Part shown: one piece after another, positions 1,290-30,882 of the stretch | How the letters are laid out: each line of letters begins with the position of its first letter | Numbering within the stretch: position 1 is the stretch's first letter | NCBI GenBank assembly: GCA_017537045.1 | Contig: JAFYLN010000197.1 | Coordinates: 1-57,623 of the forward strand | DNA from: Oscillospiraceae bacterium | GTDB lineage: Bacteria > Bacillota_A > Clostridia > Oscillospirales > Oscillospiraceae | Reading direction: 5' to 3' | DNA: 57,623 bases | The notes under the pieces: generated by a model | What the model was told of the DNA's origin: nothing | Database searches by the model: none | What the model saw: the letters and a program-made list of their open reading frames with translations, nothing else | Program-made: the position numbers and the translations under genes

Positions 1290-1367
1290 ATGAGCGTAAC
1301 AGATACCATCGCACTACTTATGCTTGTGCTTGCGGCTGTTTCTCTGGGAATCCAGATAAAGAAATAA
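1290..1367 (+). CDS. Putative holin-like type I toxin peptide
   Basis: The 25-residue peptide begins MSVTDTIALLMLVLAA and ends with lysines (QIKK). It is one short membrane helix, as in the Hol_Tox-type peptides of Firmicutes. Its GGAGG ribosome site is inside a small hairpin. The message would continue into a structured 3' region, and an opposing promoter at 1495-1523 would make an antisense RNA over that region. This arrangement is the classic type I toxin-antitoxin layout. The toxin role is inferred; a harmless leader peptide is the alternative. Confidence 0.6.
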   Translation: MSVTDTIALLMLVLAAVSLGIQIKK

Positions 1368-1487
1368 CCGCCCCCCGACCCTAGCGAGAAGCGGCAATTT
1401 CACCTAACCTTGGTTGACCGCCTTCCCGACTAGCACTCGGGTGACAGCCTTGCCCCTTGAGGGGATCTAGCACATCCCCTCAAGCGG
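1368..1487 (-). ncRNA. Putative antisense antitoxin RNA
   Basis: A near-perfect leftward promoter (1495-1523) would start an RNA near 1487. Its first element is an 11-bp hairpin (CTTGAGGGGAT, 7-nt loop, ATCCCCTCAAG; plus-strand 1456-1484). A second hairpin, CCCGA/TCGGG, lies around 1423-1439. A CCGC/GCGG hairpin followed by a T-rich stretch lies near the end of the toxin gene and could terminate it. The RNA would be fully complementary to the 3' end of the toxin message. The 3' end is approximate. Confidence 0.5.
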
Positions 1488-1494
1488 TATTAAA

Positions 1495-1523
1495 AGTATA
1501 ACATGATTGGAGGCGAATGTCAA
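1495..1523 (-). promoter_or_regulatory. Promoter of the antisense RNA
   Basis: Read on the minus strand: TTGACA (complement of 1518-1523), exactly 17 bp, then TATACT (complement of 1495-1500). It is a consensus-grade promoter pointing back at the toxin gene. It overlaps the start codon of the RHH-like gene at 1523, so protein bound there would affect it. Confidence 0.8.
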
Positions 1524-1699: not shown

Positions 1700-1751
1700 G
1701 CTCCGGCAGTGTTGCAGCACCACCGGAGCAGGGGAGAGGGTTGCAGCCCTG
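1700..1751 (+). promoter_or_regulatory. Structured leader upstream of the J-domain gene
   Basis: A hairpin GCTCCGG (1700-1706) / CCGGAGC (1723-1729) is followed by a smaller one, GGG...CCC, around 1738-1751. It starts just after the RHH-like stop codon. Together with the ribosome-site switch at 1784-1833 it makes a leader of roughly 140 bases. It may be a terminator for the upstream gene or part of a regulatory RNA. It lacks a clear T run, so simple termination is not obvious. Confidence 0.45.
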
Positions 1752-1783
1752 TTCCCATACTACCCCAACCACGTGTCACCATA

Positions 1784-1833
1784 GTCAAGGAGCATTTATA
1801 TTATAGCCTCCTTGACCTACAAAATCAAGGAGG
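1784..1833 (+). promoter_or_regulatory. Two-way ribosome-site switch
   Basis: CCTCCTTGA (1807-1815) is perfectly complementary to the ribosome site TCAAGGAGG (1825-1833). The overlapping CTCCTTGAC (1808-1816) is perfectly complementary to GTCAAGGAG upstream (1784-1792). The middle element can therefore pair with either side, closing or freeing the ribosome site of the gene starting at 1841. This is seen directly; what throws the switch is unknown. Confidence 0.65.
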
Positions 1834-28517: not shown

Positions 28518-28546
28518 AATATAGCATACATAAATTGTCGTGTCAA
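28518..28546 (-). promoter_or_regulatory. Early (lytic) promoter
   Basis: Read leftward: TTGACA (complement of 28541-28546), 17 bp, TATATT (complement of 28518-28523). The -35 lies in the left arm of the 18-bp inverted repeat, so repressor binding there would shut the early operon. Confidence 0.85.
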
Positions 28547-28593
28547 TACAGATAATGCAAAATATTTTTTCGGTTTGTATTGACACGACAATT
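28533..28593. promoter_or_regulatory. 18-bp inverted repeat holding both switch promoters
   Basis: The arm at 28533-28550 (core ATTGTCGTGTCAATAC) is exactly repeated in reverse at 28576-28593, 25 bp apart. Each arm holds the -35 box of one of the two divergent promoters, each with a 17-bp spacer. Further related sites (ATATTGT...ACAATAT at about 28500-28522) lie toward the Cro-like gene. It is a compact lysis-lysogeny control region. Confidence 0.8.
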
Positions 28594-28608
28594 CTTTTGC
28601 GCTACAAT
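28580..28608 (+). promoter_or_regulatory. Repressor promoter
   Basis: TTGACA (28580-28585), 17 bp, TACAAT (28603-28608). Transcription would start near 28615, only about 15 bases before the repressor GTG, leaving just the ribosome site as leader. Confidence 0.85.
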
Positions 28609-28629
28609 AGCGTCATGGAGGTGATTAGA

Positions 28630-29025
28630 GTGTTTAGCATTAACGAACGCTTTCGAGAAATTTTTGATGAATCCAAACTCTCCCAAGAAAAATTCGCTAA
28701 GAAAATAAAACGAGGTCGTGGAGAGGTTGCGAACATCATTTACGATAAGGTGGCTCCCAAAACAGAAATTATCGAAGCTGTCTGTGAAGAATTTGATTAC
28801 CGCGTAGAATGGCTTCGGGATGGAGAATTGCCAAAAAAAATCAAGCGATCAAAAGAAGACGAAATTGCTGAGCTTGTCGGCTCTGCTCTGACTGGCTCCA
28901 GCGAATTCAAAAAGGCCGTGATCCGCATGATCTGCAGCCGAACAGAGGAGGAGCTGGCAAATCTGGAAGCAGCTCTCCGGGCAATTTACGAAAACCTGGG
29001 AAACGAAAAGAACCAGGGCAATTAA
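28630..29025 (+). CDS. Phage repressor (XRE family, CI-like)
   Basis: The protein has 131 residues. The GTG at 28630 is chosen for the GGAGGTGAT site 8 bp upstream; in-frame ATGs further left are upstream of the promoter. The helix-turn-helix (EIFDESKLSQEKFAKKIKRG, then RGEVANIIYDKVAPKTEIIE) is followed by a charged helical C-terminus, without a LexA-type protease domain. So induction probably does not use self-cleavage. It lies opposite the Cro-like gene and should hold the early promoter off in the lysogen. Confidence 0.8.
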   Translation: MFSINERFREIFDESKLSQEKFAKKIKRGRGEVANIIYDKVAPKTEIIEAVCEEFDYRVEWLRDGELPKKIKRSKEDEIAELVGSALTGSSEFKKAVIRMICSRTEEELANLEAALRAIYENLGNEKNQGN

Positions 29026-29036
29026 CCCTGGTTCTT
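29008..29036. terminator. Hairpin ending repressor and convergent gene
   Basis: AAGAACCAGGG (29008-29018) pairs with CCCTGGTTCTT (29026-29036). The repressor stop codon and the stop of the convergent 41-residue gene both fall in or next to the loop. Read leftward it is followed by a short T run. Confidence 0.6.
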
Positions 29037-29147
29037 CAAAATCCCTCTTATAAATCCTCTGACCAACCGCAAATGTGCATTCGTTAATCTCGGGAGCCAC
29101 GACTGAATCTGTTTGATGATCTGTTCTCTGGTTTCGTCTGCTTCCAC
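29022..29147 (-). CDS. Small 41-residue protein next to the repressor
   Basis: GTG start at 29147 with GGAGG 9 bp upstream. The helical sequence (EQIIKQIQSWLPRLTNAHLR, LVRGFIRGILKNQG) resembles the small partner peptides often found beside phage repressors in Firmicutes. It has its own promoter (29180-29208) with a palindromic operator. It converges with and overlaps the repressor gene by 4 bp, so its transcript is antisense to the repressor end. Confidence 0.55.
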   Translation of the reverse strand: MEADETREQIIKQIQSWLPRLTNAHLRLVRGFIRGILKNQG

Positions 29148-29208: not shown

Positions 29209-29300
29209 GTCCCAAAAGCACAGAAAAATATTTCCGTCCAATAAAATGGACATATAACTACGCAACGTAGCGCAATTTTACACCACTAAAATAAAAAAGT

Positions 29301-29398
29301 CCGTCCGGTGCGCCAACACTGAACGGCAAAATAAAAAACACCCCGGTGCGCCAACACCAGGGTGTCCGGGCAACGATGCGCCAACATCGATAATGCCC
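29301..29398 (+). ncRNA. Array of three hairpins sharing a CGCCAA loop
   Basis: Hairpin 1 (29301-29326): outer CCGT/ACGG, inner GGTG/CACT. Hairpin 2 (29338-29365): outer ACACCC/GGGTGT, inner GGTG/CACC. Hairpin 3 (29368-29398): outer GGGCA/TGCCC, inner CGATG/CATCG. All three have the identical hexaloop CGCCAA closed by G-C, while stems differ in sequence but keep pairing. That points to selection on structure. The array lies about 105 bp before the integrase start, in the likely leader. The strand is assumed from the integrase. Confidence 0.65.
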
Positions 29399-29503
29399 AT
29401 ACAGAAAACCCATCCATCCCCGAAAGGCAAGTAAAGGGGTATAGCATAGGGACATTCTGCCTATTTATCATAGCAGAATTGCCCCGGAAAGGCAAGGAAA
29501 ATA

Positions 29504-30622
29504 ATGCTATGTATCAAATGCAAAACGGAGCTGCCGGAAGGTGCTGCGTTCTGCCATATCTGCGGTAAGAAGCAGACCACAGGGGAGAAGAAACGCTCCT
29601 CCAGCAGCCGCCCCAACGGTACCGGCTCTGTCTACCGCCGGGGAAAGACCTGGGAGTGTGCTGTCACCCTGGGTTATGTCATTGACGACAACGGCAAACG
29701 TCGAGCGGTACGGCCTACCAAGGGCGGATTCAAAACCAAGAAAGAGGCCATGGAGTATATCCCCACCCTCCGAAACGCTCCCACCCGGAAGATCCCGAAT
29801 CTCATTGACCTTTGGGAGACCTATAAAACCTCTAAGAAGTACCAAAAGCTGGGAGCCTCCCGGAAAGAGAAATACGACATTGCGTGGAAGAAGCTGGAAA
29901 GCCTCTGGTTCTGCAAGATCGACGAGCTGACCACCTTTGACCTCCAAAACGCCGTTGACAGCAATGCCGACACATACTACACCGCCCGGGATCTGAAGGA
30001 TCTTCTGTCCAAGCTCTACCAGACCGCCATGCCGGACGAGTATGTAAAATCCAATCTGTCAAAGTTTATCGAGCTGCCGGATCTGAACGCAAAGGAGCAG
30101 CAGCCCTTCCATTCTGACGAGATAGCAAAGCTGTGGACGGACTACACCGGCGGTAACTGGTGGACTGGCTATATCCTCTTGATGATCTATACCGGAATGA
30201 TGCCCGGTGAGCTGCTGGATGCCCGGAAAGCGCACATCGACTGGGAGGGCAAACAGATAGTAGGAGCCGGTAAAAAGACCGCCAAGCGGCGGGAAACGCC
30301 TATTGTACTAGCTGATGTTGTACTGCCGGTTCTGGCGGATCTCTGCGAGCATACCAAGGGTGACAAGCTGATCCGAATTAACAAGGACAGATTCTATGAG
30401 ACCTATTACGAAGCATTGGAGCGTGCCGGGTGCCGTCGGTTGACTCCATATTCCTGCCGCCATACCGCAGCGACGGAACTCACTCTTGAGAACATCCCGC
30501 CCAGCGTCATTCAGAAGATCATGCGTCACGCCCGGTATTCCACCACGGAGAAGTATATCCACATCAGTATTGATCCCATGTTGGAAGCCGTCAATAAGCT
30601 ACCCAAAACGATTGACAGTTAA
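29504..30622 (+). CDS. Tyrosine integrase with N-terminal zinc ribbon
   Basis: The protein has 372 residues. A zinc ribbon (C3, C6, C17, C20) precedes an arm-type DNA-binding region (NGTGSVYRRGKTWECAVTLG), a core-binding domain (about 100-190) and the catalytic domain. Tyr351 (EKYIH) is the nucleophile; H342 and R319 are present. The usual first arginine in TGxRxGE is Met233 (TGMMPGELL), and the H of HxxR is Tyr316 (YSCR). The gene points at the tRNA-Ser remnant 160 bp downstream. It catalyses phage integration and excision, if active. Confidence 0.85.
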   Translation: MLCIKCKTELPEGAAFCHICGKKQTTGEKKRSSSSRPNGTGSVYRRGKTWECAVTLGYVIDDNGKRRAVRPTKGGFKTKKEAMEYIPTLRNAPTRKIPNLIDLWETYKTSKKYQKLGASRKEKYDIAWKKLESLWFCKIDELTTFDLQNAVDSNADTYYTARDLKDLLSKLYQTAMPDEYVKSNLSKFIELPDLNAKEQQPFHSDEIAKLWTDYTGGNWWTGYILLMIYTGMMPGELLDARKAHIDWEGKQIVGAGKKTAKRRETPIVLADVVLPVLADLCEHTKGDKLIRINKDRFYETYYEALERAGCRRLTPYSCRHTAATELTLENIPPSVIQKIMRHARYSTTEKYIHISIDPMLEAVNKLPKTIDS

Positions 30623-30785
30623 CCGCAACTGTGGTACTATGTGGCTATGAGTTGAAATAAAACCTATGTGCGTTGCGTTTTTATTGCGTAGGCACTTTCG
30701 GGAATGTTTAACATTTTACGAGGTTTTAAGGGATAACAGCGGTTATTCCTGTGGCGAAAGTTGGATTTTTACACCCTCCGAATCC

Positions 30786-30846
30786 CCTGCTAAGGGAGTA
30801 GGCCGTCAAAAGCGGCGCGAGGGTTCAAATCCCTCTCACTCCGCCA
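30786..30846 (+). tRNA. 3' part of a tRNA-Ser(GCT): right attachment site of prophage 1
   Basis: From the anticodon loop (CTGCTAA) to CCA the sequence reads as tRNA-Ser: long variable arm GCCG/CGGC, T arm GAGGG-TTCAAAT-CCCTC, acceptor TCACTCC, G, CCA. The 5' half is absent; the DNA before it is phage sequence. The intact gene should be restored at the left end outside the window. The crossover probably lies in the anticodon arm. Confidence 0.7.
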
Positions 30847-30847
30847 A

Positions 30848-30882
30848 AAATACCCATACCCCATCGGGGTGTGGGTATTTTT
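30848..30882 (+). terminator. Terminator after the tRNA-Ser 3' part
   Basis: A 15-bp stem AAATACCCATACCCC / GGGGTGTGGGTATTT with loop ATC is followed by T residues. It is the natural end of the host tRNA transcript. Confidence 0.85.

What the first reader, a model, noticed from the sequence alone, without database searches (positions are those of the whole stretch)
29301..29398. Three consecutive hairpins with identical CGCCAA loop and co-varying stems before the integrase
Within 98 bases, three hairpins share the exact hexaloop CGCCAA closed by G-C. Stems differ in sequence (CCGT/ACGG, ACACCC/GGGTGT, GGGCA/TGCCC outside; GGTG/CACT, GGTG/CACC, CGATG/CATCG inside) yet stay paired. That is compensatory change inside one locus, good evidence for a selected RNA or single-strand DNA structure. 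It sits between the lysogeny region and the integrase start. It may control integrase translation, bind a protein three times, or act as single-strand DNA in recombination. Integrase-linked RNA motifs such as xerDC have been described; whether this is one I cannot tell.
Basis: partly seen in the sequence, partly recalled or inferred. Interest (0 to 1): 0.85.

Follow-up and report, generated by a model that had tools for sequence, protein, structure and literature searches.

The report
Antisense RNA switch on phage integrase
The three hairpins are mainly the tail of a small RNA probably made from the opposite strand just ahead of a prophage's integrase gene; it probably keeps the integrase untranslated, a type of control best known from plasmid copy-number regulation.

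Summary
The three CGCCAA hairpins at 29299-29398 are real and the only such cluster on the window's plus strand (0 in 40 shuffles). They read best on the minus strand: a sigma-70-like promoter (29495-29467) points away from the integrase, and its predicted RNA of about 130 nt runs through hairpin 3 and ends at hairpin 2, an intrinsic terminator; hairpin 1 looks like a second one. There the loops read UUGGCG.

Such a promoter-plus-terminator unit was detected in 25 of 109 distinct leaders of related tyrosine integrases (0 or 1 per shuffle of all 109), in 36 of 67 of an unrelated serine-recombinase family (found through one member with the unit), and in 29 of 2812 other leaders. In the sense leader one arm can pair either with an upstream arm or with the ribosome-binding region; own pairing beats swapped pairing (0 of 20000 permutations).

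Best reading: a pSK41-like countertranscript switch that turns integrase translation off. RNA-seq in Streptococcus pyogenes (PMC6431027) had reported antisense sRNAs upstream of four prophage integrases. The unit is not general (1 of 55 in a family-chosen sample). Transcription and repression are inferred; in the window itself equilibrium folding shows only a weak switch.

The parts
29467..29495 (-). Promoter of the antisense RNA: -35 TTGCCT, 17-nt spacer, extended -10 TGcTATGAT
   Evidence: Consensus scan; same layout in relatives
29331..29460 (-). Predicted antisense RNA, about 130 nt, ending at hairpin 2; possible longer form to about 29292 through hairpin 1
   Evidence: Predicted start and T tract; folds at z = -4.45. 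No transcript data
29368..29398 (-). Hairpin 3, body hairpin of the antisense RNA, loop UUGGCG on this strand (predicted with an inner U-G pair)
   Evidence: the nearest relative L322 has a body hairpin with the same loop hexamer and a different stem
29338..29365 (-). Hairpin 2, intrinsic terminator of the antisense RNA, loop UUGGCG, then TTTTTTATTTT
29299..29327 (-). Hairpin 1, likely second tandem terminator, loop UUGGCG, then a T tract
   Evidence: 77% repeat of hairpin 2 with its A-rich flank. Not returned by the stricter scan
29418..29435 (+). Decoy-like copy of the ribosome-binding region in the sense leader (CCCCGAAAGGCAAGTAAA)
   Evidence: Direct repeat D3 with 29483-29500, 89%
29448..29484 (+). 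Sense hairpin B (ON state): GGGACATTCTGCC region pairs with GCAGAATTGCCC; its loop side holds the complement of the antisense -10 box
   Evidence: -12.6 kcal/mol alone
29469..29511 (+). Alternative OFF structure: CATAGCA with TGCTATG across the start codon, and TTGCC with GGCAA next to the ribosome-binding site
   Evidence: -12.4 kcal/mol, excludes hairpin B
29504..30622 (+). Tyrosine integrase, 372 aa (zinc ribbon, Arm-DNA-bind_4, Phage_integrase)
   Evidence: Pfam and PHROGs; the zinc ribbon is below its Pfam cut-off
1700..1833 (+). Second module of the same kind in this window, before a DnaJ-like gene at 1841: minus-strand promoter TTGATT-17-TATAAT, minus-strand terminator 1700-1729, sense hairpin GTCAAGGAG...CTCCTTGAC (1784-1816), ribosome-binding site TCAAGGAGG (1825-1833), whose first 8 nt are an exact copy of the 5' arm
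   Evidence: the DnaJ match is below its Pfam cut-off

Best explanation
A small cis-encoded antisense RNA starts about 45 nt upstream of the integrase start codon, runs away from it through hairpin 3 and stops at hairpin 2, or at hairpin 1. It is complementary to the leader of the integrase mRNA. In the free mRNA the 3' arm of sense hairpin B pairs with an upstream 5' arm, leaving the start region open. When the antisense RNA, probably through its UUGGCG loops kissing the CGCCAA loops of the mRNA, covers the 5' arm, the 3' arm pairs instead with the ribosome-binding and start region and integrase translation stops. Because such antisense RNAs are usually constant and short-lived (recalled), integrase would be made only when leader transcription outruns them. 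Shown by sequence: promoter, terminators, mutually exclusive pairings, and their recurrence in relatives. Inferred: transcription of both RNAs, duplex formation, kissing and repression.
For: Promoter and terminator on the minus strand. 25 of 109 distinct integrase leaders carry the unit; five shuffles give 0, 1, 0, 1, 0 of 109, and the plus strand with the same geometry 1 of 109. De-duplicated leaders of ORFs of at least 120 aa in the loci fetched by then: tyrosine 33 of 159, serine 38 of 101, other 29 of 2812; without the loci fetched by the 14-nt hairpin core: 26 of 141, 37 of 99, 19 of 1969. 3' arm with own ribosome-binding region -9.20 against -6.84 kcal/mol swapped, and hairpin B -13.56 against -8.71, each 0 of 20000 permutations, 25 loci; in 14 diverged serine-recombinase leaders 5 and 1 of 20000. 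Blocking the antisense-covered stretch lowers accessibility of the ribosome-binding site (tyrosine 0.49 to 0.35, n=32; serine 0.36 to 0.27, n=37) but not in controls (0.40 to 0.43, 0.37 to 0.38, 0.38 to 0.45). YTGG on either strand of the terminator loop: 36 of 56 unit terminators against 47 of 328 others. A second module in the same window with an exact 8-nt copy of the ribosome-binding site. RNA-seq report of antisense sRNAs upstream of four prophage integrases in S. pyogenes (PMC6431027, passages); the integrase leader of a prophage of that species (315.1, another strain) carries the unit, and its terminator loop includes CGCCAA.
Against: No transcript data for this window. In the window region taken alone, the number of terminator-like sites is not above shuffles (2 found, mean 1.5; promoter-like sites 5, mean 1.8); the case rests on recurrence. 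In the window the change in predicted accessibility is small (0.74 to 0.68), and the full leader's minimum-energy fold already holds the OFF pairing. The unit was not detected in 84 of 109 relatives (some, such as L323, look like near misses of the promoter threshold) and not in 54 of 55 integrase leaders of a sample chosen by Pfam family. A strict test for exact copies of at least 7 nt (site, its complement, site again) found 0 of 71 recombinase units, so copies are usually imperfect. Accessibility did not drop in many positives (decrease beyond 0.05 in 14 of 32 tyrosine and 17 of 37 serine; increase in 2 and 5).
Confidence: 0.68

Rival explanations
1. The minus-strand unit is a small RNA acting in trans, or on the 3' end of the upstream repressor-like mRNA; pairing with the integrase leader is incidental.
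For: The predicted RNA does not reach the integrase ribosome-binding site; no target was tested.
Against: It lies at the starts of non-homologous recombinases, and own-locus pairing of the 3' arm with the ribosome-binding region exceeds swapped pairing.
Confidence: 0.12
2. The hairpins are ordinary terminators with a favourable loop that insulate the lysogeny genes from leftward transcription; the promoter is a chance AT-rich match.
For: GGTGCGCCAACACC also occurs in terminator-like hairpins for which no promoter was found, for example L291 and L308.
Against: Promoter and terminator co-occur in 25 of 109 leaders against 0 or 1 in shuffles, with 21 of the 25 predicted RNAs between 59 and 82 nt.
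Confidence: 0.1
3. The unit acts on transcription, not translation: leader pairing makes an early terminator as in pT181, or the two converging polymerases interfere.
For: Some relatives (L125, L131, L327, L333) have a plus-strand hairpin followed by T close to the start codon; convergent promoters can interfere.
Against: No plus-strand terminator was found in the window leader.
Confidence: 0.08
4. Double-stranded DNA sites for the integrase arm domain, or for a repressor, or a single-stranded DNA substrate.
For: Three direct repeats of 13 nt, CGGTGCGCCAACA and one variant, and an Arm-DNA-bind_4 domain.
Against: No copy of GCGCCAAC lies near the putative att site at about 30780-30850; serine recombinases, which lack arm domains (recalled), have the same module; loop orientation varies between relatives.
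Confidence: 0.02

Closest known systems
pSK41 RNAI and rep mRNA (staphylococcal RepA_N plasmids), as described in PMC5703833 (passages)
   Same: About 83-nt RNA counter-transcribed to a leader, with two stem-loops; binding makes a stem-loop that hides the ribosome-binding site
   Different: Controls a replication initiator; here an integrase. The window leader has only short, weak matches in the plasmid collection; pSK41 itself was not compared
pT181 countertranscript attenuator of repC (PMC5703833 and PMC5435934, passages)
   Same: 87-nt antisense RNA; pre-emptor versus attenuator pairing; ribosome-binding site inside the stem
   Different: The main effect there is transcription termination; no plus-strand terminator was found in the window leader
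Antisense sRNA family upstream of prophage integrases in Streptococcus pyogenes S119 (PMC6431027, passages)
   Same: Same place and strand relation; seen by RNA-seq; the authors suggest silencing of integrase
   Different: No mechanism, loop motif or ribosome-binding-site switch in the passages read; another host
ColIb-P9 Inc RNA with target loop 5'-rUUGGCG-3' (paper title seen in the reference list of PMC10724649)
   Same: The same loop hexamer, with its complement CGCCAA on the other strand
   Different: Control there involves a pseudoknot (title in the same list); none was sought here

Membership tests
pSK41-type translational countertranscript control | Promoter and terminator for a short RNA against the target leader (sequence level) | tested here: met
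   transcription itself not shown
pSK41-type translational countertranscript control | Alternative stem hiding the ribosome-binding site | tested here: inconclusive
   Own-versus-swapped test positive over 25 loci; weak for the window itself
pSK41-type translational countertranscript control | Target is a RepA_N replication initiator | tested here: not met
   Target is a tyrosine integrase, so it works like this system but is not a member
pT181-type transcriptional attenuator | Terminator (stem plus T tract) just before the target start codon | tested here: not met
   No plus-strand terminator in the window leader; a few relatives have one
S. pyogenes prophage integrase antisense sRNA family | Antisense unit in the intergenic region upstream of a prophage integrase (position) | tested here: met
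   expression was shown there, not here. The unit is also predicted in phage 315.1
S. pyogenes prophage integrase antisense sRNA family | Common descent with those sRNAs | not tested
Rfam families (xerDC among those considered) | Match to a covariance model | tested here: not met
   No match over the cut-off except tRNAs (for 18 related loci). I did not confirm that xerDC is in the library

The most novel reading that the evidence does not exclude
A repeatedly gained antisense-RNA switch (countertranscript, ribosome-binding-site mimic and anti-site arm) controls site-specific recombinases of both unrelated chemistries, tyrosine and serine, and some other genes of Bacillota phages. Its kissing loop has converged on the UUGGCG hexamer used by the plasmid ColIb-P9, so phage integration decisions are set by plasmid-style antisense control.
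Probability: 0.55. Interest if true: 0.78.

Novelty: new variant of a known kind. Interest (0 to 1): 0.62.

Why it matters
How temperate phages of gut Bacillota keep integrase silent in the lysogen yet switch it on quickly is, to my knowledge, little studied. A common RNA switch in front of non-homologous recombinases would supply a shared, testable answer, would explain prophage antisense RNAs that have so far only been seen by RNA-seq, and would give a gene-dosage-sensitive control like plasmid copy control.

Tried and rejected
Rejected: match to a described RNA family. Integrase arm sites: no copies of the core near the putative att site. A hairpin unique to integrases: of the loci from the first pattern scan (capped list), one search found nine with two or more stemmed copies close together; most look like coding repeats, L010 does not. 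The 14-nt core (capped list) also occurs in terminators for which no promoter was found.

Led nowhere: DNA similarity of the leader to phages and plasmids gave only short, weak matches. A strict exact-copy test for the ribosome-binding-site mimic found 0 of 71 recombinase units, 2 of 29 other units (one is window 1841) and 10 of 2780 other leaders without a unit; it is strict and does not support the mimic in recombinases. The sample chosen by Pfam family PF14659 (the 30 best loci of each of two searches) had 1 unit in 55 leaders. Other groups were also low: 1 of 29 serine recombinases of the PF07508 genome sample and 1 of 28 tyrosine recombinases of the PF00589 genome sample. An alignment of six leaders was made and not used. 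No covariance model was built, because leaders differ too much in length.

Literature: ten searches. One search was spoiled by a badly chosen term. Of eight papers only passages were read.

Full report
What is there. Three hairpins with loop CGCCAA lie at 29299-29327, 29338-29365 and 29368-29398. They are the only cluster of three same-loop hairpins on the plus strand of the window, and none appears in 40 shuffles. Hairpins 1 and 2, with their A-rich flanks, are a 77% repeat over 30 nt, so not all their likeness is independent.

The minus strand. The A-rich flanks of hairpins 1 and 2 are T tracts on the minus strand, and a scan calls hairpin 2 an intrinsic terminator there. The same scan finds one minus-strand promoter just ahead of the integrase: TTGCCT, 17 nt, TATGAT with an upstream TG, at 29495-29467. 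By itself that scan is weak (2 terminator-like sites against a shuffled mean of 1.5; 5 promoter-like sites against 1.8). The predicted RNA starts near 29460, folds at z = -4.45, and ends near 29331 or, through hairpin 1, near 29292. Its hairpin loops read UUGGCG, predicted with an inner U-G pair. The neighbours are an HTH gene on the plus strand (28540-29025), towards which the antisense RNA runs, and the integrase (29504-30622). A truncated tRNA-like 3' end, read by eye, follows the integrase at about 30780-30850 and is probably the attachment site; only short or partial repeats of it lie elsewhere in the window.

Relatives. Integrase relatives were gathered from viral contigs, the phage collection (one record), genome contigs and genomes. 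After removing duplicates, 109 leaders remained. A detector (promoter whose -35 begins within 90 nt of the start codon, then a terminator 40-190 nt on) is positive in 25 of 109. Shuffling all 109 five times gives 0, 1, 0, 1, 0, and the plus strand with the same geometry gives 1. The predicted RNA is 59-82 nt in 21 of the 25; L122, L322, the window and L134 are longer. The label needs at least 13 changes on the integrase tree of 108 rows (11 forced by well-supported branches), against 22.6 in shuffles, so it is clustered but has been gained or lost repeatedly.

Other recombinases. Some terminators with the same 14-nt core in viral contigs end antisense units in front of other tyrosine integrases (L275, L292, L300, L315) and of a large serine recombinase (L255; Pfam for L292 and L255, the others by likeness). 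L299, read as a serine recombinase from its sequence, has the terminator in the same place, but no promoter passed the threshold. Over all de-duplicated leaders of ORFs of at least 120 aa in the loci fetched by then, units occur in 33 of 159 tyrosine recombinases, 38 of 101 serine recombinases and 29 of 2812 other genes. Without the loci fetched by that core, the counts are 26 of 141, 37 of 99 and 19 of 1969. The L255-like family has 36 of 67, but it was sought because L255 had a unit. Among the 29 'other' hits are a missed integrase (L222) and HTH genes that may be replication proteins (L217, L267). A sample chosen by Pfam family PF14659 has 1 of 55, so the unit belongs to certain clades only.

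The switch. On the sense strand the complement of the antisense -10 box sits in or near a hairpin (B) whose 3' arm can also pair with the ribosome-binding region. Over 25 loci the own 3'-arm-to-site pairing averages -9.20 kcal/mol against -6.84 when swapped between loci, and hairpin B -13.56 against -8.71 (0 of 20000 permutations each). In L123, L132 and L335 my cut of the arm was too short; they were kept in the count. In 14 diverged serine leaders the values are -13.25 against -10.83 (5 of 20000) and -18.07 against -13.23 (1 of 20000). Blocking the antisense-covered stretch lowers site accessibility in positives (0.49 to 0.35, n=32; 0.36 to 0.27, n=37) and not in three control sets (n=99, 66, 118). 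A second measure over the whole start region agrees more weakly (0.47 to 0.43 and 0.37 to 0.31; control 0.43 to 0.46, n=199). The drop exceeds 0.05 in only 14 of 32 and 17 of 37.

The window itself. Hairpin B (-12.6 kcal/mol) and the OFF structure (-12.4) exclude each other. With the 5' arm present in a short stretch, B wins. In the full leader the equilibrium fold already contains the OFF pairing, and accessibility changes only from 0.74 to 0.68. The window is therefore a weak example of its own mechanism under equilibrium folding; folding during transcription was not modelled. A direct repeat of the ribosome-binding region (29418-29435 and 29483-29500) fits a decoy. A clearer case by sequence lies in the same window at 1700-1841 before a DnaJ-like gene: the 5' arm TCAAGGAG is an exact copy of the ribosome-binding site, although there too the equilibrium fold of the free leader already pairs the site.

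The loop. Unit terminators carry YTGG on either strand of the apical loop in 36 of 56, against 47 of 328 other terminators of the same loci (the pattern-selected loci, the PF00589 and PF07508 genome samples and the window left out). Related leaders share ancestry, so the number is not a probability. YUNR U-turn loops are known to speed antisense pairing (recalled). The target motif 5'-rUUGGCG-3' of ColIb-P9 is named in a title in the reference list of PMC10724649.

Known systems. PMC5703833 (passages) describes pSK41: an RNA of about 83 nt against the rep leader is proposed to induce a stem that hides the ribosome-binding site; pT181 instead mainly terminates transcription. PMC6431027 (passages) reports antisense sRNAs upstream of the integrases of four S. 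pyogenes prophages and suggests silencing; it gives no mechanism in the passages read. The integrase leader of S. pyogenes prophage 315.1 carries the predicted unit, and its terminator loop includes CGCCAA. Of the nine further phage records examined, two have a unit (Faecalibacterium phage Aster, and a weak one in Butyrivibrio phage Idris); the three further leaders examined beside Aster have one (315.1, Roos, Chenonceau). In the listings of the ten searches and the passages read I found no report of the ribosome-binding-site switch on integrases; most subscription papers are not in that library.

Verdict. It is a new variant of a known kind: plasmid-style countertranscript control applied to phage recombinases. 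Transcription and repression remain to be shown.

Noticed in passing
window 1360-1523: A possible third unit of the same kind before a 57-codon ORF (start 1523): promoter TTGACA-17-TATACT and a minus-strand terminator. Weaker than the other two.
   Followed up: partly
window 29022-29147, minus strand: A possible 41-aa ORF (GTG start; translated) with a promoter-like site upstream (29208-29180), lying between the antisense terminators and the end of the HTH gene.
   Followed up: partly
window 30780-30850: A tRNA-like 3' end not called as a tRNA, just after the integrase; probably the attachment site. No full partner copy was found in the window.
   Followed up: partly
L010 7545-7667: Four copies of GCGCCAAC close together, at least two in stemmed hairpins with different stems, in a viral contig. 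It does not look like coding repeats; not explained.
   Followed up: no
L125, L131, L327, L333 leaders: Plus-strand hairpin followed by T close to the integrase start: these may attenuate transcription as pT181 does.
   Followed up: no
L217, L267, L335, L327: Antisense units also precede two HTH genes, a gene without a Pfam match and a DUF1351 gene in other contigs.
   Followed up: partly
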